Shown: one piece after another, positions 2,128 through 29,218 of the stretch | Layout of the letters: the number at the start of each line of letters is the position of its first letter | Numbering within the stretch: the stretch's first letter is position 1 | IMG/VR virus record: IMGVR_UViG_3300022188_000037 | Coordinates: 1-31,059 of that record | Source: a virus | Direction: 5' to 3' (one strand) | Length of the DNA: 31,059 bases | Made by a program: the position numbers and the translations under genes | Notes under the pieces: model-generated | Databases searched by the model: none | Seen by the model: only the letters and a program-made list of their open reading frames with translations | What the model was told of the DNA's origin: nothing

Positions 2128-2171
2128 CCCGGCTGGCGGGCACAAAAGCCCGCTAGTCGGGGTTTTTATTT
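2128..2171 (+). terminator. Rho-independent terminator (possibly partial) within the small-gene operon
   Basis: A 14-bp GC-rich stem (2128-2141 with 2148-2161, two G-U pairs) with a 6-nt loop is followed by GTTTTTATTTT. The next gene starts only 23 bp later with no clear promoter, so read-through would be needed to express it. Confidence 0.8.
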
Positions 2172-2193
2172 TAAACCAAGAGGAGGTATAGCT

Positions 2194-2490
2194 ATGAAAG
2201 AAATAATAGAAAAATGGTTAAAAGAAAAGCTTCCACAAGGAAGCGGATTTTCACTACGAGGTATAGAATTTAAAAAAGATCACGTGGTAGCCTACATGGA
2301 CTACCACGTGATGAATGACGTAGGATATTACGTGGGGTATGTGGATTTTAGCATCCGCATACCTTATACATATCCTGACGAAGATTTTAAAGTGATAATT
2401 CATGGGAAACGCTCGCATTATCTCACAAAGAAGTATCTCTTGCGAGAGTTTATCGAAGATACAATCGCACTTTCTTTAGAGGAGGATTAA
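2194..2490 (+). CDS. Hypothetical protein, 98 aa
   Basis: Unrecognised. The start has an excellent AGAGGAGGT ribosome binding site. The N-terminus is helical and charged (MKEIIEKWLKEKLPQG), followed by a beta-rich middle with alternating aromatic and valine residues (YVGYVDFSIRIPYTYPDEDF), and an acidic C-terminal helix ending SLEED. The gene ends 3 bp before the next start, so translation is probably coupled. Its DNA carries three strong inverted repeats (2229-2244, 2281-2310, 2336-2363). It resembles the next gene in size and general pattern (N-terminal helix, beta-rich core, acidic C-terminal helix), but I see no clear sequence identity. Confidence 0.7.
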   Translation: MKEIIEKWLKEKLPQGSGFSLRGIEFKKDHVVAYMDYHVMNDVGYYVGYVDFSIRIPYTYPDEDFKVIIHGKRSHYLTKKYLLREFIEDTIALSLEED

Positions 2491-2493
2491 GAA

Positions 2494-2775
2494 ATGAAAA
2501 AAGAACAGATCGTGAGAAAACTATTGGATGAAATCATTTTCGTGGAAGCCAGGCTTCAACACATTTATTGCGGTGATGATTATATCACCGCAATTTTCAC
2601 AATCGATAATTTGGAGATTACCGCTGTAATCCCTCTGGATAATCCCAGGGATTACAACGTTTTTTATCCTCACGTCCCCGAAGTTTTTGAACGTTGGGGG
2701 GGAGAACATTCATTTTGGTGTTTGGTAGAGGGTATGCTCGACGAAGTAACCTATCAAGAGGGGGTGACAAAATGA
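2494..2775 (+). CDS. Hypothetical protein, 93 aa
   Basis: Unrecognised small acidic protein. The ribosome binding site AGAGGAGG lies in the end of the preceding gene, and the stop overlaps the next start as ATGA. The pattern is an N-terminal helix (MKKEQIVRKLLDEI), a beta-rich centre (YITAIFTIDNLEITAVIPLD) and a C-terminal helix, similar in outline to the gene before it. The DNA carries two long perfect inverted repeats, 2567-2594 (11-bp arms) and 2625-2656 (10-bp arms). It is probably co-translated with both neighbours. Confidence 0.7.
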   Translation: MKKEQIVRKLLDEIIFVEARLQHIYCGDDYITAIFTIDNLEITAVIPLDNPRDYNVFYPHVPEVFERWGGEHSFWCLVEGMLDEVTYQEGVTK

Positions 2776-3146
2776 AACAAACAATGTTACTAGAAAAAAA
2801 CACCGTCCTGGAGGGCAACAAGCCCTCCAACATGGGATTGAAAATCCGGGTATTAAAATCTGGCTTGGTAACAACCGGTCAGATAAACCTACCGTTTAAA
2901 ATCGAAGCGGTAGGCAATGGTTATTATAGTCATCTTTTGGAGACAATACTCCAAGAAATCGGCAAGAAAGAATTCAAGGAAGCCAAGGAATTACTAACCT
3001 TAGCCTCCGACAAAAAATGGGAATACTTATGGCCCCCTGCTGGTCGGCTTAAAAGAAGAGTACCACCAAAACATATCCTAAACCTGAATATGCTGGAGGT
3101 GGTTAAATTGCCTCCAGCAAAAAAGAAGAAAAAGGATAAAAAATAA
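2772..3146 (+). CDS. Hypothetical basic protein, 124 aa
   Basis: Unrecognised. I chose the ATG at 2772, which overlaps the previous stop (ATGA) and follows a GAGGGGG sequence. A longer frame from 2694 would bury the first 26 residues in the upstream gene. The protein has a beta-rich N-terminal half, a helical segment around residues 58-80, and a strongly basic tail ending in repeated lysines (PPAKKKKKDKK), which suggests nucleic-acid or ribosome contact. That is inference. Inverted repeats at 2809-2829, 2888-2914, 2935-2956 and 3091-3119 lie in the coding sequence. A terminator follows. Confidence 0.7.
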   Translation: MKQTMLLEKNTVLEGNKPSNMGLKIRVLKSGLVTTGQINLPFKIEAVGNGYYSHLLETILQEIGKKEFKEAKELLTLASDKKWEYLWPPAGRLKRRVPPKHILNLNMLEVVKLPPAKKKKKDKK

Positions 3147-3167
3147 CTAAACCTTTATTGCCTACCT

Positions 3168-3204
3168 AGCCGTCAGCCGTATCCTGGTTGACGGCTTTTC
3201 TTTT
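3168..3204 (+). terminator. Rho-independent terminator after the small-gene operon
   Basis: An 8-bp perfect stem AGCCGTCA/TGACGGCT (3168-3175 with 3189-3196) is followed directly by TTTCTTTTGCTT. It closes the transcription unit that starts at about 1840. Confidence 0.75.
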
Positions 3205-3342
3205 GCTTATCTTTCTTTCACTTCATTATCATCAAACTTCAATCCTTTACACACATACATACATAGCATTATACACTATATCACAACACACATAACAAGC
3301 AGCAAGCTACAATTTGATTTAACCCAAACTAAAGACAATCAC

Positions 3343-3356
3343 GTTTCACGTGAAAC
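3343..3356. promoter_or_regulatory. parS-like ParB-binding palindrome
   Basis: GTTTCACGTGAAAC is the conserved core of the bacterial chromosomal parS site bound by ParB/Spo0J. With its right flank it matches 15 of the 16 bases of the classic TGTTTCACGTGAAACA (the first base is C here). It lies between genes. No parA or parB gene is present in the window, so it would use host ParB or a phage ParB encoded elsewhere. Confidence 0.6.
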
Positions 3357-3568
3357 ATTTATATTGCTTGCGTATGATTCTGACTAACCAGATTGATAAT
3401 GATTATTGGAATTATTTCCGATTATTTTGGCTATGGGTTTGGGTAGTCTAGTTGATAATGGTTATTAAATTCATTCTTAAATGAATTGGTAAGATTATTG
3501 CTAATGCAATAGGTATGCCCTTGCATGGAACACTGGGGGGATGGTTTGGCAGGGGGCGCTACTGCCCC

Positions 3569-3822
3569 AAAATTGCCAGTAAAATTTTGAATACCTTAAA
3601 AAATTTAATTTTTTTTAAAAAGGCAAAAATTGCTGACAAAGTTTTGAGTATCTTAAAAAATTTAATTTTTTAACCAACGATAATATTGCCAAAAATTGCT
3701 AATAAAATTTTGAATGTTTTAAAAAATTTAAATTTTTTAGATGACAAAAATTGCTAGTTGTTTTAGAATATTCTAATAGAAAATTTGAACACCTTAAAAA
3801 TTTAATTCTTAGAAGACAGAAA
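3569..3822 (+). repeat. Four AT-rich tandem repeats, 55-66 bp period
   Basis: Copies begin with AAAATTGC at about 3569, 3625, 3691 and 3746. They share a following (T)AAAATTTTGAAT-like block and the palindromic stretch TTAAAAAATTTAATTTTTT. The fourth copy is more diverged. The unit is nearly pure A/T and would be curved and easily melted, fitting a DNA-unwinding element or a nucleoid-protein binding region. Confidence 0.55.
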
Positions 3823-6492: not shown

Positions 6493-7470
6493 ATGATTAA
6501 AAAGTATGAATTGCTAAAAGATGACTTTATTGAGTGGTCTGGTGTAAGACTCTATCGAATTAGAGCTTGCAAAAGCTTTGGAGATGTAGCAAAAGGAACT
6601 CTTGGTGGATACATTGAAAAAGAATCAAACCTCTCTCACAACGGTAATTGTTGGATTTATGATAATGCTAAAGCATTCGGTAATGCTAGAGTAGCCGACG
6701 ATGCCAAGATTTATAACAATGCTGAGATTTCTGAAAATTCTGAAATATATGGTAACGCAAAAATTTGGGATAATGTCCGTGTCGGGGGTAATGCTTATGT
6801 ATTTGAGAATGCTGAGATTCGAGAAAATGCAGTAATTAAAGATAATGCTAAGGTACATGGAAATGCTAAAGTAAGGGGAGAGGCTTTAATTCGGGACAAT
6901 GCGTCAGTCAGGGATAGTGCTCAAATTTATGGGTGTGCTATAATTCGAGACTTCGCCAAGGTTGGTGATGATGCCGAAATATTTGGCTTTGCTGAAATTT
7001 ACGGTTTTGCTGGAATCTTTGGCAGAGCGAGAATTTATGATGGAGCAAGAATAGGTGGCGACGTTAAAGTTTGCGGAGATGCAGAAGTCTATGGAAGGGC
7101 ACAGATTAAGTACGGCTTGTTGACCCAAGATATTAAGAAAGATTTAATTCAGTACATTGCGTGCTCACTGAACATCTATCCAGTTAATGGGAAATATATC
7201 CTATACAAAAAAGTCAATAAGAAAGCACTTGGGGTATATACTTCTCTCTATGATCCTTATTTCGAATACCGTGATGGCGAATACGCTGAAGTTGATAATC
7301 CAAACTTGGACTTCCTAGAAAGTTGCGGCGATGGCATACATGTTTCAACACCTTTTTACTGGAATGGAGGCGACACGTTAATTGCTGTGGAAGTAGATAT
7401 TGCTGATGTTATTACATGTATGGAAGGAAAGTTAAGATGCAGAAAAGTAAAAGTGATAGGGGAAGTTTAA
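6493..7470 (+). CDS. Hexapeptide-repeat (left-handed beta-helix-like) protein with C-terminal domain
   Basis: A 325-aa protein. The N-terminal ~50 residues (LYRIRACKSFGDVAKGTLGGYIEKESNLS) lead into about 25 six-residue repeats of the type GNAKVY or DNAEIR, running to about residue 205. The six-residue period with a small residue and a beta-branched residue at fixed positions predicts a left-handed parallel beta helix, as in bacterial acyltransferases, but no catalytic His is obvious. The C-terminal ~110 residues contain YILYKKV, YAEV and CGDGIHVSTPF and resemble a small domain found on many phage proteins (I think DUF7666; tentative). The ribosome binding site is AAGGAG. Function is unknown; similar phage proteins are common. 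It follows the duplicated 31-nt leader. Confidence 0.7.
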   Translation: MIKKYELLKDDFIEWSGVRLYRIRACKSFGDVAKGTLGGYIEKESNLSHNGNCWIYDNAKAFGNARVADDAKIYNNAEISENSEIYGNAKIWDNVRVGGNAYVFENAEIRENAVIKDNAKVHGNAKVRGEALIRDNASVRDSAQIYGCAIIRDFAKVGDDAEIFGFAEIYGFAGIFGRARIYDGARIGGDVKVCGDAEVYGRAQIKYGLLTQDIKKDLIQYIACSLNIYPVNGKYILYKKVNKKALGVYTSLYDPYFEYRDGEYAEVDNPNLDFLESCGDGIHVSTPFYWNGGDTLIAVEVDIADVITCMEGKLRCRKVKVIGEV

Positions 7471-7534: not shown

Positions 7535-8605
7535 ATGAACAGTTGCTCCTACAAAGATTATGCACCAGAAGGATTTAGATATCCATCTACTCGTTACTTT
7601 GGTAGTAAAAGAAAACTTTTAGATTGGATTTGGGAACATGTAAAGGATTTGAAATTTGATACTGTGTTGGACTTATTTGGAGGAACAGGAAGTGTAAGTT
7701 TAATGTTTAAACGATATGGGAAACGGGTATTTTATAATGACCTTCTTAAATTTAACCAATTGATTGGTATGGCAATAATTGAAAATAAGAATATTTTTGT
7801 CTCAGATTCAGATATAGATAAAATTTTAAATTTTGACAACAAGAAGGATTATCCAGATTTCATTCAAAAAAATTTTAAAGATATTTTTTTCTTAGACCAT
7901 GAAAATGAATGGCTGGATAAGGTTACAACCAATATATTGAATTTAAAAAATAGATACAAAAAAGCTATATTATTTGCCTCTCTTTTCCAATCTTGTTTGG
8001 CTAAACGTCCTTTTAACCTTTTCCATAGGGCTAATTTGTATATGAGAATCGCTAATGTCCCAAGAAGTTTTGGAAATAAAACTACATGGGAAACACCCTT
8101 TGAACAGCTTTTAAGAAGGTTTGTGAAAGAATACAATAGAGCAGTATTTGACAACGGGAAAAGGAACTTAGTCATCGGAGGGTACGATGCTATTTCTGCA
8201 CCTAATGGTGTGGATTTAGTGTATATTGATCCCCCTTATTTTTCTCAAAGAAGCGGAGGAACAAATTATATAGTTTTTTATCATTTCTTGGAGGGATTGG
8301 TTGATTACAAAAATTGGGAAAAACGGATCAAGAACTTTAATACAAAAATAAAAAGAATAAAAGATAGCCCTGAGATTAAAGCATGGACTCACAAGGAACA
8401 GATCAAAAATTCCTTTAGAAAAGTTATTGAGAGATTTCAAGATGCTATCATTGTTTTATCATATCAAGAAGGCGGTATTCCATCAAAAGATGAGATTTTT
8501 GTAATGTTAAAATCATACAAGAAAAATGTTAAAGTTTTATCTATGCCTCATCGCTACGCTCTGAGTCCAACTCCTAAAAATGAATTGTTATTTATAGCGA
8601 CGTAA
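7535..8605 (+). CDS. DNA adenine-N6 methyltransferase, D12 class
   Basis: A 356-aa Dam-like methyltransferase transferring a methyl group from AdoMet to adenine N6. Motifs in order: TRYFGSKRKLLDWI (about residues 19-32) is motif X; DLFGGTGSVSLMF (about 46-58) is the FxGxG AdoMet-binding motif I; VYIDPPYF (around D232) is the catalytic DPPY motif IV. The order X-I-IV is that of the alpha/D12 group. The middle, about residues 90-225, would hold target recognition. No restriction enzyme gene is adjacent, so it is probably an orphan protecting phage DNA from host restriction or marking it. Specificity cannot be read from sequence. The ribosome binding site AAGGGAAG is moderate. Confidence 0.88.
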   Translation: MNSCSYKDYAPEGFRYPSTRYFGSKRKLLDWIWEHVKDLKFDTVLDLFGGTGSVSLMFKRYGKRVFYNDLLKFNQLIGMAIIENKNIFVSDSDIDKILNFDNKKDYPDFIQKNFKDIFFLDHENEWLDKVTTNILNLKNRYKKAILFASLFQSCLAKRPFNLFHRANLYMRIANVPRSFGNKTTWETPFEQLLRRFVKEYNRAVFDNGKRNLVIGGYDAISAPNGVDLVYIDPPYFSQRSGGTNYIVFYHFLEGLVDYKNWEKRIKNFNTKIKRIKDSPEIKAWTHKEQIKNSFRKVIERFQDAIIVLSYQEGGIPSKDEIFVMLKSYKKNVKVLSMPHRYALSPTPKNELLFIAT

Positions 8606-9059: not shown

Positions 9060-10286
9060 ATGAATGAAGGGAAAAACAAAGTAAAAATCAGAAATATTTT
9101 GAGCCTTTTTGACGGAATTTCCTGCGGGAAGCTGGCGCTTGACAGAATTGGTATTGGATACGAAAACTATTACGCTAGCGAAATAGATAAGTACGCAATC
9201 GCAATAACAAAGTATAATTTTCCAGATACCATATTCGTTGGCGATGTAAGAAATCTGAATGGAAAAGACTTTGATAATGTTGATTTGATAATGGGAGGTA
9301 GCCCTTGCCAAAGCTTTTCCTTTTCGGGCAAAAGGCAAGGAATGGTAACCAAGACTAAGATTGAAGTTACCACGCTTGAACAATACCTTGAATTGAAAGA
9401 GCAAAACTTCGACTTTGAAGGTCAATCATATTTATTCTGGGAATTCGCTAGATTGCTAAAGGAAATCAAGCCTAGATGGTTTTTGCTTGAAAACGTAAGA
9501 ATGGCCAAAAAATGGAAAGATGTAATTACGAATACCCTAGAAGTAGAACCTGTTGAAATCAATTCTGCTTTAGTTTCAGCTCAAAATAGAAGAAGGCTTT
9601 ATTGGACAAACATTCCAATCAAGGGATTACCCGAAGATAAAGGCATACTATTAAAAGACATATTAGAAAATGAAGTTGATGAAAAATACTATTTGCGAAA
9701 AGATATTGCTGTAGAAATTTATAAAGACATTCGCATTTCACATGTACCAAACAGAATCGGAATTGTTGGTAAAGGCTATCAAAACGATAGGGTATTTTCT
9801 ATCTTCGGAAAAAGTGCTTCGATAACAGCGTCAGGCAGGAACACTGGAGGTCATACTGGGTTATACTTAGTAGGCAAGCTAAATATTAAGGGGCAAGATT
9901 GCATTAAAAGGATTTATAGTTCAGAAGGTAAGTCTCCAACATTAACAACAATGCAAGGCGGATACAGACAACCTAAAATTCTCGTGGATAAGACTAAATC
10001 TTACTGTATAGACGCTTGTTATTATAAAGGAAGTAATTTAAAGCAATATTTTGAGAAAAAAAGAAGACAGTTGGTATTCCCGTTCGATAAAAATGGAAAC
10101 ATTAGAATCAGAAAATTAACCCCTCTTGAATGTGAAAGATTACAAACTCTTCCTGACAATTACACTCAATATGGTCTGTTTGACGACGGAAAAATAAGAA
10201 AAATTTCGGATACTCAAAGGTATAAAGTGATAGGAAATGGCTGGACTGTGGACATAATAGCTTGGATTTTAGATTTCATTAAATAA
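9060..10286 (+). CDS. DNA (cytosine-5) methyltransferase
   Basis: A 408-aa C5-cytosine methyltransferase with the usual motif order: LSLFDGISCGKLAL (about residues 14-27, motif I, AdoMet binding); GGSPCQSFSFSGKRQG (about 80-95, motif IV with the catalytic Cys in PCQ); LLENV (about 142-146, motif VI ENV); NRRRLYWTN (about 176-184, motif VIII); LTPLECERLQTLPDNYT (about 358-374, motif IX); and YKVIGNGWTVDIIAWI (about 389-404, motif X). The stretch between VIII and IX is the target-recognition region. It is second in a pair with the adenine methyltransferase, so the phage can mark both bases. Upstream of the ATG the ribosome binding site is weak. No cognate endonuclease is visible. Specificity is unknown. 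Confidence 0.92.
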   Translation: MNEGKNKVKIRNILSLFDGISCGKLALDRIGIGYENYYASEIDKYAIAITKYNFPDTIFVGDVRNLNGKDFDNVDLIMGGSPCQSFSFSGKRQGMVTKTKIEVTTLEQYLELKEQNFDFEGQSYLFWEFARLLKEIKPRWFLLENVRMAKKWKDVITNTLEVEPVEINSALVSAQNRRRLYWTNIPIKGLPEDKGILLKDILENEVDEKYYLRKDIAVEIYKDIRISHVPNRIGIVGKGYQNDRVFSIFGKSASITASGRNTGGHTGLYLVGKLNIKGQDCIKRIYSSEGKSPTLTTMQGGYRQPKILVDKTKSYCIDACYYKGSNLKQYFEKKRRQLVFPFDKNGNIRIRKLTPLECERLQTLPDNYTQYGLFDDGKIRKISDTQRYKVIGNGWTVDIIAWILDFIK

Positions 10287-23018: not shown

Positions 23019-26000
23019 ATGGCTATTAAACTCCCAGATGATATAAAATTGATGGCATCGGAAAGAATGGACGACACCGATGAAGGCGGCGGTCGCATGA
23101 CCGGCAACGAAATAATTGGCGGTCAGACCAATAATATCTTCCCCGACATATCTCGATTGGATAGAACATACGGCAGAGTATCTCTGCGAAAAGTATACGC
23201 AGCATGCCTATCAGACAATCAAGATACATATTATGGAGCGCATGTTATTATTACTGATCCTCCAGATGATACTAATGTAAAATGCTGGATGCTTACAACT
23301 GATTCAGCTACCGATAGAAGAATCGACGCAAAAAATCGGATAGAAAGCTATGTAATCCAAGACGGACGGTTTATTGGCTATCTGTGGGGCGATCATCCCG
23401 CAGGGCTATCTGTCCTTAGAATAGTAATGCCACCAAACGAAGTAGATCCTGATGTCGGTAGTGTTTTATATCTGTCGTATCAATCTTATTCGCAATTTGT
23501 TAAAATTATTTCAGTATCATCTGAAGTTAAACAATTTACAATTAGTACCGGTATAGTCACACGCAAAATACTCACAGCGGAAATCACCCCAGACCTAAAA
23601 TATGATTTTGCAGGATGCGATATATTGGAAACAACCTTACCTTCACCTGGGGTTGTTACTGACATATATAAAACCTTCGGTGTTGATAGGACTAAATACT
23701 ATGGTGTAGCTACATTAACACAATCAGCGTCAGCAGGTGACTTAAATGTAGTAGTGGATCATATTTTTACTCAGATTGTGCCTGTAAATCGTGCAGAATC
23801 ACCGCTGACAGATGTTACGCTTTCTGAAATCAGACCCAATAGTGCAAACTTAATTGTTGACGATTCAGAGCAAACAATCCCAACATGTACTTACTCGGTG
23901 TCTGTAAATATTACGTCTGGACTCACCCTTTATACAGGAGCAGCTATTTCGCCAAGAACATTGACTGTATCCACAAGTATAGATTCATGGACAGACGATG
24001 GAAGAGGCAATCTAGTGAGAAATGACGTTACAGAAGGTTATGTTGATTACAATACAGGTCAAATAACCTTTCTAACACCGTCTATCACAGGACCGCATAC
24101 TGTAACAGTTACATTTAAAAATGCATCAAAACTTTACAAAATAAGATTTAGCCAATCTCAAGAAGTTACAATTTCGACACAAGGTTCTACATGGATATTC
24201 AGTTTGCAGCCATTACCTCAACCAGGGACAGTTGTAATTGACTTCTTATCACAAGGTAGATGGTATAGATTAGTTGATAATGGAAAAGGATCGTTATCTC
24301 CTGAAATACCAGGAACTGGCGGTGGGACAGTAAATTATACAACAGGCAGCGTTGTAGCTACATTTAACGCTCTTCCTGATATTGGATCTGAAGTTATCTG
24401 TTACTGGGACAACCCAGACGAACGAATTGCTTTTCATTACCACAAAACAGACGTTACCCACAATGATATGTGGTTTGAGTATACAACTTCTAACAAACCT
24501 ATTTCGAAAAATACTGTTACGATAACATGGCAAGAAGATTCTACAACCAAAACTTTAACCGATGATGGTAACGGTAATCTAACCGGTGATGGAAGCGGTA
24601 CAGTCAATTACAACACAGGTCTTATAAGGTTTCTGCCTGCAAATTTAGTTGAACCGAATACAGAATTTAACATATCATATAATTACGGCGATCCTATTGT
24701 AGAAACCTTTGAACATCCAGCCATAACTGAATTCGTACGCGATGGTGGAACTTACAGAGATAGAGACGGTACACAAAAGGAAAAGATAGACTACGGCTGG
24801 ATTGATTTAGTTTTGTCAGAAGCTCCGATAGCAGGCACAGTCAAAGTCGAATACGATTGTGATTATGTCCAAGGAGCTGAATATTACTACGATAACTACG
24901 TATATAGAAGAATACGAGATGTAGTAGATCCGCATATTACATTATATGATGATGGAAATGGCGTCCTTAAATTAGCAAGTGATATTTCTGCAAAAATGAA
25001 TACATCTGGGGACAAGTCAAACCCCAATTTTGTTGATTTTTCGATAGATTACGCAAATAATAAAGTACGCATCGGCACATATTTGACTATATATCAGAAT
25101 GTTACTGTATCTCGTATTTACCCTCGGGGGCACTATCGTATAATATCATACGACAGGACACGAATAGATTATGTTGACTATGTAATCGATCCAGAAGTTG
25201 TAACAGTTACAGTAACTTACTATTCTCAAACTGGAAGCACTAGTGCACAAGAAACATTTTCGTCTCCGCTTTATATCGATTTGTCAGGCAATTATTTTAA
25301 GGTAAGGTTATCTACTAACAGCACAATGATATGCATGGGTACACTATCCACTCCGCCTTCCAGTCTTAACTTACTATCGGATGGGGTAGCTTATGACTAT
25401 GATGGTATTTTATACAGATTGAACTTTTCTAATGGCGAGTTTTCCCAACAAGCCATAGGAACTATAAATCGAGATAAATGCTTGGCAGCGCTTACCGTAT
25501 GGAATTCGCAAACAGGAAGACCTGATCTATCGCTCGTAGGCGAATATACTATACCGTTTTATCCTGTTTATTCCGCTGTTTTCAGAATACCCGCTCCAGT
25601 TCGGCCTGCCAGTTTTATTTTAAGTTTCTATGCAGAAGGTCAACAATATACTGTTACAGCTTCTGCTAACGGAGACATTAACGATGAATGGATTGAAGGT
25701 AAAATAGATTATAACACAGGAATTGTAAGAGTTAGGTTTGGGAAATGGGTAGATAAAGATACATTCGTTGATGCTCCCTGGTATCACGAAGATCTCGTTG
25801 ACGGCGATCTAGTATGGCAACCCATTCCAGTTGATGCTGAATCTATCAAATATAGCGCCGTAACTTATAGCTTTATCCCGATAGATCCTGAGCTAATCGG
25901 ACTTGACCCAGTGAAGCTTCCGATTGACGGTAGAGTCCCAATCTTTCGACCAGGCTTTGTTGCCGTTGTACATAATACTAAATCCGAACAGTTGCCGAAT

Positions 26001-26750
26001 GACCTCCAGGCAGGTCAGCAAATACAGCTATCACGGGGAAATCTGACCTATTGCGATCTATACGATTACAATGGCATATATGTTGATCCAAATTTATACA
26101 CCGTGGATTTGGAAAACGGGATTATCACAATGGCAGATCCGCTTGATCTAAGCGAGTATACACAACCGCTTACAGCGATACACCGCATTGAAGATATGAA
26201 AGTAATCTCCAGAGTTGATATTAACGGTTATATTTATTTCACAAGTCCATTAAAAAATGATTACACAGCAGGAGATACTTATGTGTCAAGTGCTCTCGTA
26301 TGTGGCGACCTAAAAGCACAAGTCTATAATGTATTTGATCAGAAAACTTGGACAGGCGATTGGTCTGACTCCCGCATAGGAGATCCTTGCACAGCAAACT
26401 ACAATACTGTTGATTATCCCATCACGACTACAAACAAAGGTGCAATAAAAGAACGCTGGGCAATTATCTTTACATCAGACACAGATTTTAAAGTTGTAGG
26501 CGAGACCGTAGGTGAAATAGCGTATGGAAATACCGCAACTGACTGTGCTCCTATAAACCCTGCAACGGGTGTACCTTATTTTTACATTCGACACGAAGGT
26601 TGGGGATCTGGTTGGGCATCCGGAAACGTACTAAGATTCAACACAGATGCTGCACATTATCCAATATGGTGCGGTAGGACAATCCTTCCTGGCGAAGCTG
26701 TATATGATGAAGATTCCTTTACATTACAAATTCGAGGAGACGCTCACTGA
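23019..26750 (+). CDS. Large distal tail/tail-tip protein with repeated beta modules, 1243 aa
   Basis: The N-terminus (IKLPDDIKLMASERMDDTDEGGGRMTG, then PDISRLDRTYGRVSLRKVYAAC) matches a family of large tail proteins that follow the small post-tape-measure protein in several phages. The rest is mostly beta-structured. A module with DxGxGxL, then (V/I)(N/D)Y(N/T)TGxV, then a hydrophobic strand occurs at least four times (around residues 325-360, 425-460, 515-550 and 890-910), looking like tandem beta-sandwich domains of a tail fibre or baseplate-like hub. The C-terminus (YFYIRHEGWGSGWASGNVLRFNTDA, then PIWCGRTILPGEA) looks like a compact capping domain. The gene ends exactly at the insertion point of the IscB element, and its ribosome binding site is AGAGGTG. 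Confidence 0.7.
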   Translation: MAIKLPDDIKLMASERMDDTDEGGGRMTGNEIIGGQTNNIFPDISRLDRTYGRVSLRKVYAACLSDNQDTYYGAHVIITDPPDDTNVKCWMLTTDSATDRRIDAKNRIESYVIQDGRFIGYLWGDHPAGLSVLRIVMPPNEVDPDVGSVLYLSYQSYSQFVKIISVSSEVKQFTISTGIVTRKILTAEITPDLKYDFAGCDILETTLPSPGVVTDIYKTFGVDRTKYYGVATLTQSASAGDLNVVVDHIFTQIVPVNRAESPLTDVTLSEIRPNSANLIVDDSEQTIPTCTYSVSVNITSGLTLYTGAAISPRTLTVSTSIDSWTDDGRGNLVRNDVTEGYVDYNTGQITFLTPSITGPHTVTVTFKNASKLYKIRFSQSQEVTISTQGSTWIFSLQPLPQPGTVVIDFLSQGRWYRLVDNGKGSLSPEIPGTGGGTVNYTTGSVVATFNALPDIGSEVICYWDNPDERIAFHYHKTDVTHNDMWFEYTTSNKPISKNTVTITWQEDSTTKTLTDDGNGNLTGDGSGTVNYNTGLIRFLPANLVEPNTEFNISYNYGDPIVETFEHPAITEFVRDGGTYRDRDGTQKEKIDYGWIDLVLSEAPIAGTVKVEYDCDYVQGAEYYYDNYVYRRIRDVVDPHITLYDDGNGVLKLASDISAKMNTSGDKSNPNFVDFSIDYANNKVRIGTYLTIYQNVTVSRIYPRGHYRIISYDRTRIDYVDYVIDPEVVTVTVTYYSQTGSTSAQETFSSPLYIDLSGNYFKVRLSTNSTMICMGTLSTPPSSLNLLSDGVAYDYDGILYRLNFSNGEFSQQAIGTINRDKCLAALTVWNSQTGRPDLSLVGEYTIPFYPVYSAVFRIPAPVRPASFILSFYAEGQQYTVTASANGDINDEWIEGKIDYNTGIVRVRFGKWVDKDTFVDAPWYHEDLVDGDLVWQPIPVDAESIKYSAVTYSFIPIDPELIGLDPVKLPIDGRVPIFRPGFVAVVHNTKSEQLPNDLQAGQQIQLSRGNLTYCDLYDYNGIYVDPNLYTVDLENGIITMADPLDLSEYTQPLTAIHRIEDMKVISRVDINGYIYFTSPLKNDYTAGDTYVSSALVCGDLKAQVYNVFDQKTWTGDWSDSRIGDPCTANYNTVDYPITTTNKGAIKERWAIIFTSDTDFKVVGETVGEIAYGNTATDCAPINPATGVPYFYIRHEGWGSGWASGNVLRFNTDAAHYPIWCGRTILPGEAVYDEDSFTLQIRGDAH

Positions 26751-27008
26751 TCAACCACCCCGCCCTGAAGGGTGGAGCTTGTAGCTCCGTGGTTGACTAG
26801 GGGGCATGGTTATGATTTTACCATGCAGCCGTTATTCCAGTCATGGCACCCTGGGGTGTTCCGCAAGCTCCAGGCTCTGCCGCCAGTGGTTAAACAGTCC
26901 TGTCGGGGTAGGGGCAGTGCTACTGGCAAAACAAGCTGGAATAACTCCCCCGATGCAGGCCCTTACCTGCCTTCGGGCAGAGAAAACTCCTTTTTGTTAG
27001 GAGGATTC
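26751..27008 (+). ncRNA. IscB omega RNA (HEARO-type)
   Basis: A roughly 255-nt highly structured stretch before iscB. A 5' stem TCAACCAC/GTGGTTGA (26751-26758 with 26789-26796) encloses two hairpins (CCGCCC-TGAA-GGGTGG and GGAGCT-TGT-AGCTCC). Then come GCATGGT/ACCATGC, a long-range pair TTATTCCAG/CTGGAATAA (about 26832 and 26935), GCCAGT/ACTGGC, and CTGCC-TTCG-GGCAG directly before the iscB ribosome binding site. In IscB systems this RNA binds the nuclease, and its guide is the ~16 nt transcribed just upstream of 26751, that is, the end of the tail gene. Confidence 0.78.
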
Positions 27009-28259
27009 ATGGTTGTCTATGTATTGAATAAACATGGTAAACCTTTAATGCCATGTCATCCTGCAAGAGCAAGAATTTTGCTTAAACAAGGAAAAGCAAA
27101 GGTAGTTTATCGGACTCCTTTTACTATTCAATTACTCTATGGTAGTTCAGGTTACAAGCAACTTATAACATTGGGAGTGGACAGTGGTTACAAGTATATT
27201 GGATTATCTGCTATAACAGCCAAAAAAGAAATTTATTCAGCTGAAGTTCAGCTTAGGACGGATATTTCCAAACTTCTTACGGAAAGAAGACAACACCGTA
27301 GGTTTAGACGTTATCGTAAAACTTGGTATCGTAAGCCACGCTTTCTTAATCGAAAAAAACCTGAAGGCTGGTTGCCTCCTTCTATACAGCATAAGTTGGA
27401 TAGTCATATCAAGGTTATTGAACATGTAAAGAAAATACTACCTATAACTAAAGTCAATATTGAAGTTGCAGCTTTTGATATTCAAAAAATCAAGAATCCT
27501 GATATTTCAGGCAAAGATTACCAGAATGGAGAACAAAAGGGTTTTTGGAATGTAAGAGAATATGTTCTCTACCGAGATAAACATACTTGTCAAATTTGCA
27601 AAGGCAAATCTGGAGATAGTGTATTAGAAGTTCATCACATTATTCCAAGAAGTAAAGGTGGAACAAATAGACCAGATAATTTAATTACTTTGTGCAGAAC
27701 TTGCCATCAAAATCTGCACAGAAATAATTTGAAAGTTAGTTTGACAGCGAATAAAAATTTCAAGGCCGAAACTTTTATGTCAATTGTCAGATGGAAACTA
27801 GTAAATAGATTAAAAGAATTAGGTAATGCTATGTTTATAACTTATGGTTATCTTACTAAACAGAAACGATTAGAACTAGGATTACCAAAAAGCCATATCA
27901 ACGATGCGTTCGTAATAGCAGGGGGAAGCAAGCAGAAAAGAAGCTCTGTTTACTACTTCATCAAGCAGGTAAGAAAGAGCAACCGCAAGCTGTTTAAGGG
28001 GATCAGAAGCCGCATTCGTAATACTGCTGAGAGGTTTGTAAAGGGATTTCAAAGGTTTGATAAAGTAAAATATAGAGGCACAGAGTGCTTCATAGCTGGA
28101 AGAAGAAAAACAGGCTACTTCAGTCTGAAAAAACTAGATGGAACTGTTGTTTCTAACTCTGCAAGTTACAAAGAGCTAAAACTTCTTGAAAGTTTCAGAA
28201 CCTTTTTAACCGAAATGCACATCCTCCCTGCCATGAATGACGGGGTTTCTAGCACTTAA
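27009..28259 (+). CDS. iscB: IscB RNA-guided nuclease (RuvC + HNH), 416 aa
   Basis: I chose the ATG at 27009 (GGAGGATTC upstream); an open frame from 26772 only translates the omega RNA. Domains in order: PLMP domain (GKPLMPCHPARARILLKQGKA, residues about 10-30); RuvC-I LGVDSG with D58; an Arg-rich bridge helix (RRQHRRFRRYRKTWYRK, about 92-108); RuvC-II NIEVAAFD with E152; HNH with CQIC, EVHHIIPRSKGG (H209/H210), DNLITLC and CHQNLH; RuvC-III SHINDAFVIA with H296 and D299. All catalytic residues are present, so it should cut both strands of DNA matched by its omega RNA. IscB is the ancestor of Cas9. In a phage it may serve as a homing nuclease against related genomes lacking the element. Confidence 0.92.
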   Translation: MVVYVLNKHGKPLMPCHPARARILLKQGKAKVVYRTPFTIQLLYGSSGYKQLITLGVDSGYKYIGLSAITAKKEIYSAEVQLRTDISKLLTERRQHRRFRRYRKTWYRKPRFLNRKKPEGWLPPSIQHKLDSHIKVIEHVKKILPITKVNIEVAAFDIQKIKNPDISGKDYQNGEQKGFWNVREYVLYRDKHTCQICKGKSGDSVLEVHHIIPRSKGGTNRPDNLITLCRTCHQNLHRNNLKVSLTANKNFKAETFMSIVRWKLVNRLKELGNAMFITYGYLTKQKRLELGLPKSHINDAFVIAGGSKQKRSSVYYFIKQVRKSNRKLFKGIRSRIRNTAERFVKGFQRFDKVKYRGTECFIAGRRKTGYFSLKKLDGTVVSNSASYKELKLLESFRTFLTEMHILPAMNDGVSST

Positions 28260-28270
28260 AAGGAGTAAAG

Positions 28271-29218
28271 ATGACAGTCGCTAATTTTTACTGCAACAGT
28301 GATCCATACGCACCAGCTTTAGGCAATTCGTGGTATGATATAGCGTCTTTACTACGTAAATGTTTGTGTGATGGTTACGGTGGCTCCGCCCCCGCCGGGT
28401 GGACATGTGAATGGTGGGATGAAACTAATGAAGTAGCAGTTTTCAGAATACCTGTGTCATCTCAGTTCTTTCTACGAATAGCTGGCTATGCAGAAAATTC
28501 CCACATGAGAGCTGTCTATGCATCAATTTACCAAGCAATGGGAGATCAGAACACAGGATCTGGACGCAGACCCGCAGATGAGACGAAATCGATTCTGTTG
28601 GGTGTAGATCCTAATACACCTTATTGGTTTGTCGTAGCTGATTCTCGATCTTTTTGGCTTGGTTGCGGTGGTGAATACAGCGGTTGCACTTTCTTTGGAG
28701 AATTGGATTCAATAGTGCCTGACGATCTATACAGTTTTTCGTTTCCCGGTAAAAATGCTATTGTAACAACAGGAGATATTTCGCCTGACACACCGTTGCT
28801 AGACTTCTATTATACTGATTCTGGGCACTTTCCTTTATACGCATATGATTCCGCATTTTCTCCAACTGGAGACTGCGTCAGCTTAACATATAGACGCCCT
28901 GGAGGAGCTGTAAACAGTAACAGAACTCAAATAGGGCAAACGGACGGTTCACCACCATGTCCATATTTAGGTGGAGCATTACTTTACAGCAGAATTCCTA
29001 TAATAGAAACAGACCATATAGACAGGTTTAGAGGTTTCATACCAGGATTGTTGGAATTGCAGCATAACCGTGTTGACCTTTTATCTCTTGTCCCATCCGA
29101 TCGAGGATATATCTTGCGAACTTTAGGTAATAAGCAATTGGTTCTTGTTAAGATGAATTATTATAATACTGTTATGGCAATAGACCTCAACAAATATAGA
29201 ATCTTAGAAGGTTCGTGA
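28271..29218 (+). CDS. Distal tail/tip protein, 315 aa
   Basis: A beta-rich 315-aa protein, ribosome binding site AAAAGGAG. The N-terminus (NSWYDIASLLRKCLCDGYG, then PAGWTCEWWDETNEVAVFRIP) matches a phage family where one gene of this type follows the large tail protein, so the IscB element has split two genes that normally adjoin. LDFYYTDSGHFPLYAYD and the C-terminal LVKMNYYNTVMAIDLNKY suggest strand-rich domains. No enzymatic motif is seen. A role in tail-tip or receptor-binding assembly is inferred from context. Confidence 0.65.
   Translation: MTVANFYCNSDPYAPALGNSWYDIASLLRKCLCDGYGGSAPAGWTCEWWDETNEVAVFRIPVSSQFFLRIAGYAENSHMRAVYASIYQAMGDQNTGSGRRPADETKSILLGVDPNTPYWFVVADSRSFWLGCGGEYSGCTFFGELDSIVPDDLYSFSFPGKNAIVTTGDISPDTPLLDFYYTDSGHFPLYAYDSAFSPTGDCVSLTYRRPGGAVNSNRTQIGQTDGSPPCPYLGGALLYSRIPIIETDHIDRFRGFIPGLLELQHNRVDLLSLVPSDRGYILRTLGNKQLVLVKMNYYNTVMAIDLNKYRILEGS

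What the first reader, a model, noticed from the sequence alone, without database searches (positions are those of the whole stretch)
26735..28259. IscB element placed directly after a tail-gene stop, with a guide drawn from that gene
The element begins at the base after the TGA at 26748-26750, and its excision would restore the gap between two tail genes with a perfect ribosome binding site. In IscB systems the guide is the sequence just 5' of the omega RNA, here 26735-26750 in the 3' end of the tail gene. The nuclease would therefore recognise related phages that lack the insertion, a homing strategy giving an advantage in coinfection. All catalytic residues are intact and there is no transposase.
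Basis: partly seen in the sequence, partly recalled or inferred. Interest (0 to 1): 0.72.

Follow-up and report, generated by a model that had tools for sequence, protein, structure and literature searches.

The report
RNA-guided homing element between phage genes
A small mobile element encoding a complete IscB RNA-guided DNA cutter and its guide RNA sits exactly between two tail genes of a phage; a close relative has the same site without it, and the guide and neighbouring motif match that empty site, so the element probably spreads by cutting relatives that lack it.

Summary
The element is real: an intact IscB gene (27009-28259) preceded by a HEARO/omega RNA (26750-26966). Its junction CACTG|ATGACAG sets the insertion at 26750-28270 (1521 bp, 2-nt ambiguity). 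The 24 nt before the omega RNA match the empty site at 23 positions and are followed there by ATGACAG. Related IscB elements have ATGR at the right boundary in 36 of 37 cases with a recognisable right-end hairpin, so a suitable TAM is present. Three distant phages have the two tail genes overlapping without an insert, so the window gained it. No Y1 transposase is in the contig. Homing is well supported at sequence level, but activity is untested, and the one guide/target mismatch (position 6 from the TAM) is a real caveat. One claim is wrong: excision would not restore a gap or a ribosome-binding site. The empty site is a TGATG overlap; AAGGAG lies inside the element's right end and replaces the native site that the insertion cut off. 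That translation-restoring right end recurs in the closest relatives at other sites and may be new.

The parts
23019..26750 (+). Upstream tail gene (1243 aa); its 3' end supplies the guide
   Evidence: ORF; PHROG 6128 full length; related to annotated tail proteins of other phages
26734..26739 (+). GAGGAG, native Shine-Dalgarno of the downstream tail gene, now cut off from it by the insertion
   Evidence: 10 nt before the start codon in empty relative G001; also present in Pseudomonas phage Lodos
26733..26749 (+). Presumed 17-nt guide of the omega RNA
   Evidence: Directly 5' of HEARO position 1; 23 of the 24 nt 26726-26749 match the empty site; guide length from PMC9640706
26750..28270 (+). 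Whole inserted element (1521 bp, 2-nt GA ambiguity at the ends)
   Evidence: Comparison with the empty site in G001
26750..26966 (+). HEARO / omega RNA scaffold
   Evidence: Rfam RF02033, 134.9 bits, model 1-211/211; folding z-score -2.57
26999..27004 (+). AGGAGG, Shine-Dalgarno of iscB
   Evidence: Read from sequence
27009..28259 (+). iscB, 416 aa RNA-guided nuclease (PLMP, split RuvC, arginine-rich RRXRR region, HNH)
   Evidence: dN 0.13 with saturated dS against L011
28226..28245 (+). Right-end hairpin (CCCTGCCATGAATGACGGGG)
   Evidence: Read by comparison with right ends of L011 and others; not folded separately
28260..28265 (+). AAGGAG, element-borne Shine-Dalgarno, 5 nt before the downstream start codon
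   Evidence: Absent from the empty site; similar right ends in L011, L036, L037 at other sites
28271..28277 (+). ATGACAG: right flank, presumed TAM, and start codon of the downstream gene
   Evidence: ATGR follows the right-end hairpin in 36 of 37 related elements
28271..29218 (+). Downstream tail assembly gene (315 aa)
   Evidence: PHROG 9600 tail assembly protein; 86% identical in G001

Best explanation
A transposase-less IscB/omega-RNA (OMEGA/HEARO) element that acts as an RNA-guided homing element of phages. Transcribed with the tail genes, its omega RNA would begin with about 17 nt copied from the 3' end of the upstream tail gene. IscB loaded with this RNA would recognise the uninterrupted site of a co-infecting relative (guide match followed by ATGACA), cut it, and be copied in by recombination with the flanks. 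Its own genome is spared because there the guide is followed by ATCAACC. The ATGR motif puts such elements directly 5' of start codons. Here the element lies between an overlapping stop and start: its first base completes the upstream stop codon and its right end carries a new Shine-Dalgarno, so both tail genes stay usable. Shown by sequence: element, boundaries, empty site, arrangement of guide, target and motif, direction (gain), intact constrained nuclease, no Y1 transposase in the contig. Inferred: expression, cleavage, copying, advantage in co-infection.
For: Empty site in a 92-95% identical phage; guide/target match 23 of 24 followed by ATGACAG, unique in the sequences searched; ATGR at 36 of 37 related right boundaries; uninserted outgroups; intact nuclease under purifying selection; full-length omega RNA; no Y1 transposase; target lies on conserved coding sequence plus start codon, as in Lodos AGAGGAGACGCGGACTG|ATGACC; presence/absence polymorphism of IscB elements among closely related Staphylococcus phages.
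Against: No activity data. Only one occupied and one empty allele of this site. The mismatch at TAM-proximal position 6 (guide U opposite target-strand G) might block cutting of G001: in OgeuIscB mismatches at positions 1-14 abolished cleavage (PMC9640706). The 81%-identical copy sits at an unrelated site in an otherwise unrelated phage, so movement to new sites also occurs, which homing alone does not explain. No conversion tract stands out at the junction. The contig may be incomplete.
Confidence: 0.62

Rival explanations
1. A non-autonomous IS200/IS605-like (ISC) transposon moved by a Y1 transposase acting in trans from the host or another element; IscB serves to restore the element after excision (retention) rather than to home between phages.
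For: Right-end hairpins and a strict ATGR right flank look like transposon ends and target preference; close copies sit at unrelated sites. Both roles can coexist.
Against: No Y1 transposase in the window, G001 or G002; Goltsman et al. report few HEARO nucleases next to TnpA (PMC9755519).
Confidence: 0.25
2. An immobile or decaying passenger inherited with the phage, with no present activity.
For: One known carrier of this insertion; scaffold position 1 departs from the consensus (A for G).
Against: Intact frame and catalytic residues, dN 0.13 with saturated dS, near-consensus omega RNA; the A completes the upstream stop codon, which points to accommodation rather than decay.
Confidence: 0.07
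3. A phage weapon kept for excluding competing phages: cutting of the relative's tail region matters, copying does not.
For: The target is conserved at a tail gene junction in distant phages; G001 carries a different IscB.
Against: The guide comes only from the insertion site, so it cannot be aimed elsewhere, and an occupied allele is protected; this is the signature of site-specific homing. Exclusion may be a by-product.
Confidence: 0.06

Closest known systems
IscB OMEGA systems (OgeuIscB and ISC elements of the IS200/IS605 superfamily)
   Same: Protein domains, catalytic residues, HEARO/omega RNA directly upstream, guide position 5' of the scaffold, right-flank motif compatible with NNRR
   Different: No TnpA in the contig; in a phage; at an overlapping stop/start; right end carries a Shine-Dalgarno for the interrupted operon
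Virus-associated HEARO nucleases (Goltsman et al. 2022, PMC9755519)
   Same: IscB/HEARO on viral contigs; over 16% of their fragments were viral or prophage-derived
   Different: In the sections read, that paper gives no empty sites or homing role; here an occupied/empty pair fixes ends, guide and motif
TnpB gene drive in plasmids (Mears et al. 2025, PMC11870625)
   Same: A transposon's RNA-guided nuclease cuts element-free copies of its own site and biases inheritance
   Different: Cas12-type TnpB of an IS element, in plasmids; here Cas9-type IscB without TnpA, in a phage, not tested experimentally
Free-standing phage homing endonucleases (for example PMC10448857)
   Same: Small selfish nuclease genes between or near essential phage genes, absent in relatives
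   Different: Target recognition by an RNA guide copied from the insertion site instead of a protein DNA-binding domain

Membership tests
IscB (OMEGA nuclease) | Curated IscB protein model | tested here: met
   NF040563 401 bits against a cut-off of 175
IscB (OMEGA nuclease) | PLMP motif, split RuvC (D, E, H, D), arginine-rich region, HNH | tested here: met
   P12-L13-M14-P15, D58, E152, H296, D299, H209/H210 in the alignment; OgeuIscB D61, E193, H340, D343, H247
IscB (OMEGA nuclease) | omega RNA directly upstream with guide at its 5' end | tested here: met
   HEARO 26750-26966; that the transcript includes the tail-gene end is not tested
IscB (OMEGA nuclease) | RNA-guided DNA cleavage next to a TAM | not testable with these tools
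   Sequence arrangement fits; needs an assay
HEARO RNA (RF02033) | Covariance model above gathering score | tested here: met
   134.9 bits against 83
Autonomous IS200/IS605 (ISC) transposon | Own Y1 transposase TnpA | tested here: not met
   PF01797 absent from G000, G001, G002, with positive controls in five named genomes; contig may be incomplete
Homing element | Same site uninterrupted in relatives, insertion derived | tested here: met
   G001; outgroups S1, Lodos, AS1
Homing element | Nuclease recognises the empty but not the occupied allele | tested here: inconclusive
   Guide and motif are intact only in the empty allele, with one seed mismatch; no activity data
Homing element | Copying into the empty allele above Mendelian rate | not testable with these tools
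   Needs mixed infection or a plasmid assay
Group I intron / IStron | Self-splicing intron around the nuclease gene | tested here: not met
   Only HEARO reaches a gathering score in the window; the insertion lies between genes

The most novel reading that the evidence does not exclude
Phage IscB elements are a class of RNA-guided homing elements adapted to gene junctions: the ATGR motif puts them at start codons, the guide covers the native ribosome-binding site, and the right end evolved to give the interrupted gene a new translation start. In Silviavirus this goes as far as a synonymously altered start of the resolvase gene that no longer matches the guide, a natural counterpart of the recoded rescue used in engineered gene drives.
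Probability: 0.4. Interest if true: 0.8.

Novelty: new variant of a known kind. Interest (0 to 1): 0.58.

Why it matters
IscB is regarded as the likely ancestor of Cas9, yet what stand-alone IscBs without a transposase do in nature is open. An occupied/empty pair in sister phages, with guide, motif and direction readable, makes the homing hypothesis directly testable in vitro. It also shows how such an element can sit in an essential late operon without breaking it, and would extend RNA-guided drive from TnpB in plasmids to IscB in phages.

Tried and rejected
Flank co-conversion: identity at the junction (97-98%) is hardly above the 92-95% background, and the fall in the middle of the 1243-aa tail gene is most simply ordinary tail-gene mosaicism. 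Host: no match to the tail gene in 19 genomes of the order of the Hippea MAG that carries a 75%-identical IscB; that search had no positive control, so the host remains unknown. More empty sites: an exact degenerate scan of IMG/VR found only the one. Motif from memory: I first recalled a longer OgeuIscB motif; the paper I could read gives NNRR, so the recalled one was dropped. A recalled 2009 report (Weinberg et al.) of HEARO integration next to ATGAC/GTGAC could not be opened and is only a lead. Two first calls used a wrong reading frame and failed. Literature on phage IscB homing: none found in nine searches of the held open-access library, which lacks most subscription papers, so novelty is not established. 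The excess of right ends with a Shine-Dalgarno (12 of 51 against 2.4 by shuffling) is not a clean statistic: elements are related, and 15 of the 51 boundaries were placed by eye, several with the motif in view. Group I intron and intein readings were rejected because the insertion lies between genes and only HEARO is found.

Full report
What is there. The window is a 31,059-base virus record. Between two tail genes lies an element made of a HEARO/omega RNA (26750-26966, 134.9 bits, full-length model) and a 416-aa IscB (27009-28259; NCBIfam IscB 401 bits against a cut-off of 175; Pfam RRXRR and HNH; closest solved structures are IscBs such as OgeuIscB). PLMP, the RuvC residues D58, E152, H296 and D299 and the HNH histidines are present (OgeuIscB residues from PMC9640706). 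Against the 81%-identical copy L011, dN is 0.13 with dS saturated, so the protein is under constraint.

Empty site. A search with each flanking tail protein found the same phage, IMGVR_UViG_3300021495_000012 (G001), holding both genes and no insert between them. It is 92-95% identical to the window over most of the late region. Its junction reads GAGGAGACGCCCACTGATGACAGTC. The window reads GAGGAGACGCTCACTG|ATCAACC ... AAGGAGTAAAG|ATGACAGTC. The insertion is therefore 26750-28270, with a two-base GA ambiguity. In G001 the upstream stop and downstream start overlap (TGATG).

Direction. Three distant phages with the same pair of genes (Stenotrophomonas phage S1, Pseudomonas phage Lodos, Marinobacter phage AS1; tail protein 32-39% identical) also have overlapping stop and start codons and no insert (homology of the downstream gene was tested for S1 and Lodos, the latter weak, and not for AS1). 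The empty state is most simply ancestral and the window gained the element.

Guide and motif. HEARO position 1 is base 26750, so in a 5'-guide system the guide is the preceding 17 nt or so, 26733-26749. The 24 nt before 26750 match G001 at 23 positions; the one difference is position 6 counted from the motif (guide U opposite target-strand G). In G001 they are followed by ATGACAG, in the window by ATCAACC. No other place in the sequences searched of either phage has 5 or fewer mismatches in 16 before ATGR. Of 99 related elements from viral and cellular contigs, 37 have a right-end hairpin that a simple rule recognises, and in 36 of these ATGR follows 2-18 nt after it (34 within 3-18 nt), mostly at 6-9 nt. 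Chance would give roughly one in eight for such a stretch (inference from ATGR at 1 in 128 positions). ATGR fits the NNRR motif reported for OgeuIscB (PMC9640706). The same paper reports that mismatches at positions 1-14 abolish cleavage, so the present G001 allele may be partly or wholly resistant. This is the main evidence against homing into that particular relative.

How the neighbours survive. The element begins with A where the HEARO consensus has G; that A completes the upstream stop codon, while with G the gene would read seven residues further. The native Shine-Dalgarno GAGGAG of the downstream gene lies 10 nt before its start in G001, and the same sequence stands there in Lodos; in the window it is inside the guide, 1.5 kb away. 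The element's right end provides AAGGAG five bases before the start codon. The closest relatives, at unrelated sites, have the same kind of right end: L011 AAGGAGATAGGAG|ATGA, L036 AAAAGGAGG|ATGG (spacing zero, so of doubtful use), L037 AAAGGAGGGAGAA|ATGG. About half of all boundaries (26 of 51) open a frame of at least 50 codons, against 28% for other ATGR sites. Twelve of 51 right ends carry a Shine-Dalgarno against 2.4 expected by shuffling, but relatedness and hand-placed boundaries weaken this number. That the right end is selected to restore translation is an inference.

Mobility. No Y1 transposase is found in the window, in G001 or in G002. The 81%-identical copy L011 lies in a phage (G002) with no other similarity to this one, so elements do reach new sites. 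G001 has a different IscB elsewhere and G002 has a second one. In Staphylococcus myophages the pattern is seen in a population: seven Silviavirus genomes carry an IscB element at a site that is empty in about 43 relatives, and JDF86 carries one where phiSA_BS1, with 99.7% identical flanks, does not. In the Silviavirus case the element lies just inside the resolvase gene and its right end supplies a new start in which AAT AGT AAA AAA is replaced by AAT TCG AAG AAA (VL10) or AAT TCG AAA AAA (CIFT phages), while the empty genomes examined have AGT or AGC. The altered copy no longer matches the presumed guide. It could have arisen by selection against self-cutting or by recombination with a relative such as vB_SscM-1, which has TCA there. 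The omega RNA of these Staphylococcus elements is only weakly matched by Rfam (about 32 bits).

Judgement. The element, its boundaries, the empty site and the direction are shown by comparison. That IscB uses the tail-gene end as guide follows from the established anatomy of the family. Cutting of the empty allele, copying into it and an advantage in co-infection are inferred. I hold RNA-guided homing at 0.62, with transposition in trans plus retention as the main rival; the two can coexist. Virus-borne HEARO nucleases are known (PMC9755519) and RNA-guided drive is described for TnpB in plasmids (PMC11870625). The phage setting with a readable empty allele and the translation-restoring right end appear to be the new parts, within the limits of the literature that could be searched.

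Noticed in passing
L150 (OP940114.1, Silviavirus VL10) about 2160-3800; L154, L155, L163, L164, L166: IscB element inside the start of the resolvase (RusA-like) gene; its right end supplies a new start with a synonymously altered N-terminus (Ser AGT to TCG, three bases) that no longer matches the guide. Seven occupied genomes, about 43 empty relatives.
   Followed up: partly
L153 (OQ129426.1, JDF86) against L157 (MH078572.1, phiSA_BS1): IscB element inserted in the Shine-Dalgarno of the next gene; flanks 99.7% identical to an empty relative; the right end regenerates AAGGAGGAG.
   Followed up: partly
L065 11249-11332 and 14510-14594: Directly right of the L011/G002 IscB element lies an 84-bp partial copy (90.6%) of the start of another gene of the same phage, as if the element had moved together with part of an earlier right flank.
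   Followed up: no
L064 5873-7354 (G001) and L066 4811-6315 (G002): The empty-site relative carries a different IscB (45% identical, weak HEARO) elsewhere, and G002 carries a second IscB (34%), so these phages hold several unrelated IscB elements.
   Followed up: no
L004 and L005 (both from metagenome 3300006674): Near-identical IscB elements with the same right-hand gene but different left flanks, hence different guides.
   Followed up: no
window 23334-25934: The middle of the 1243-aa tail gene falls to about 30-60% identity with the sister phage while both ends stay near 90% or above, like an exchanged receptor-binding module.
   Followed up: no
window 6493-7470: Protein with many short DNA-type repeats (resembles a left-handed beta-helix); the sister phage has two tandem copies of the gene region where the window has one.
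   Followed up: no
window 7535-8605 and 9060-10286: Two putative DNA methyltransferase genes close together: one adenine-type judged from its motifs only, one C5-cytosine (Pfam PF00145).
   Followed up: no
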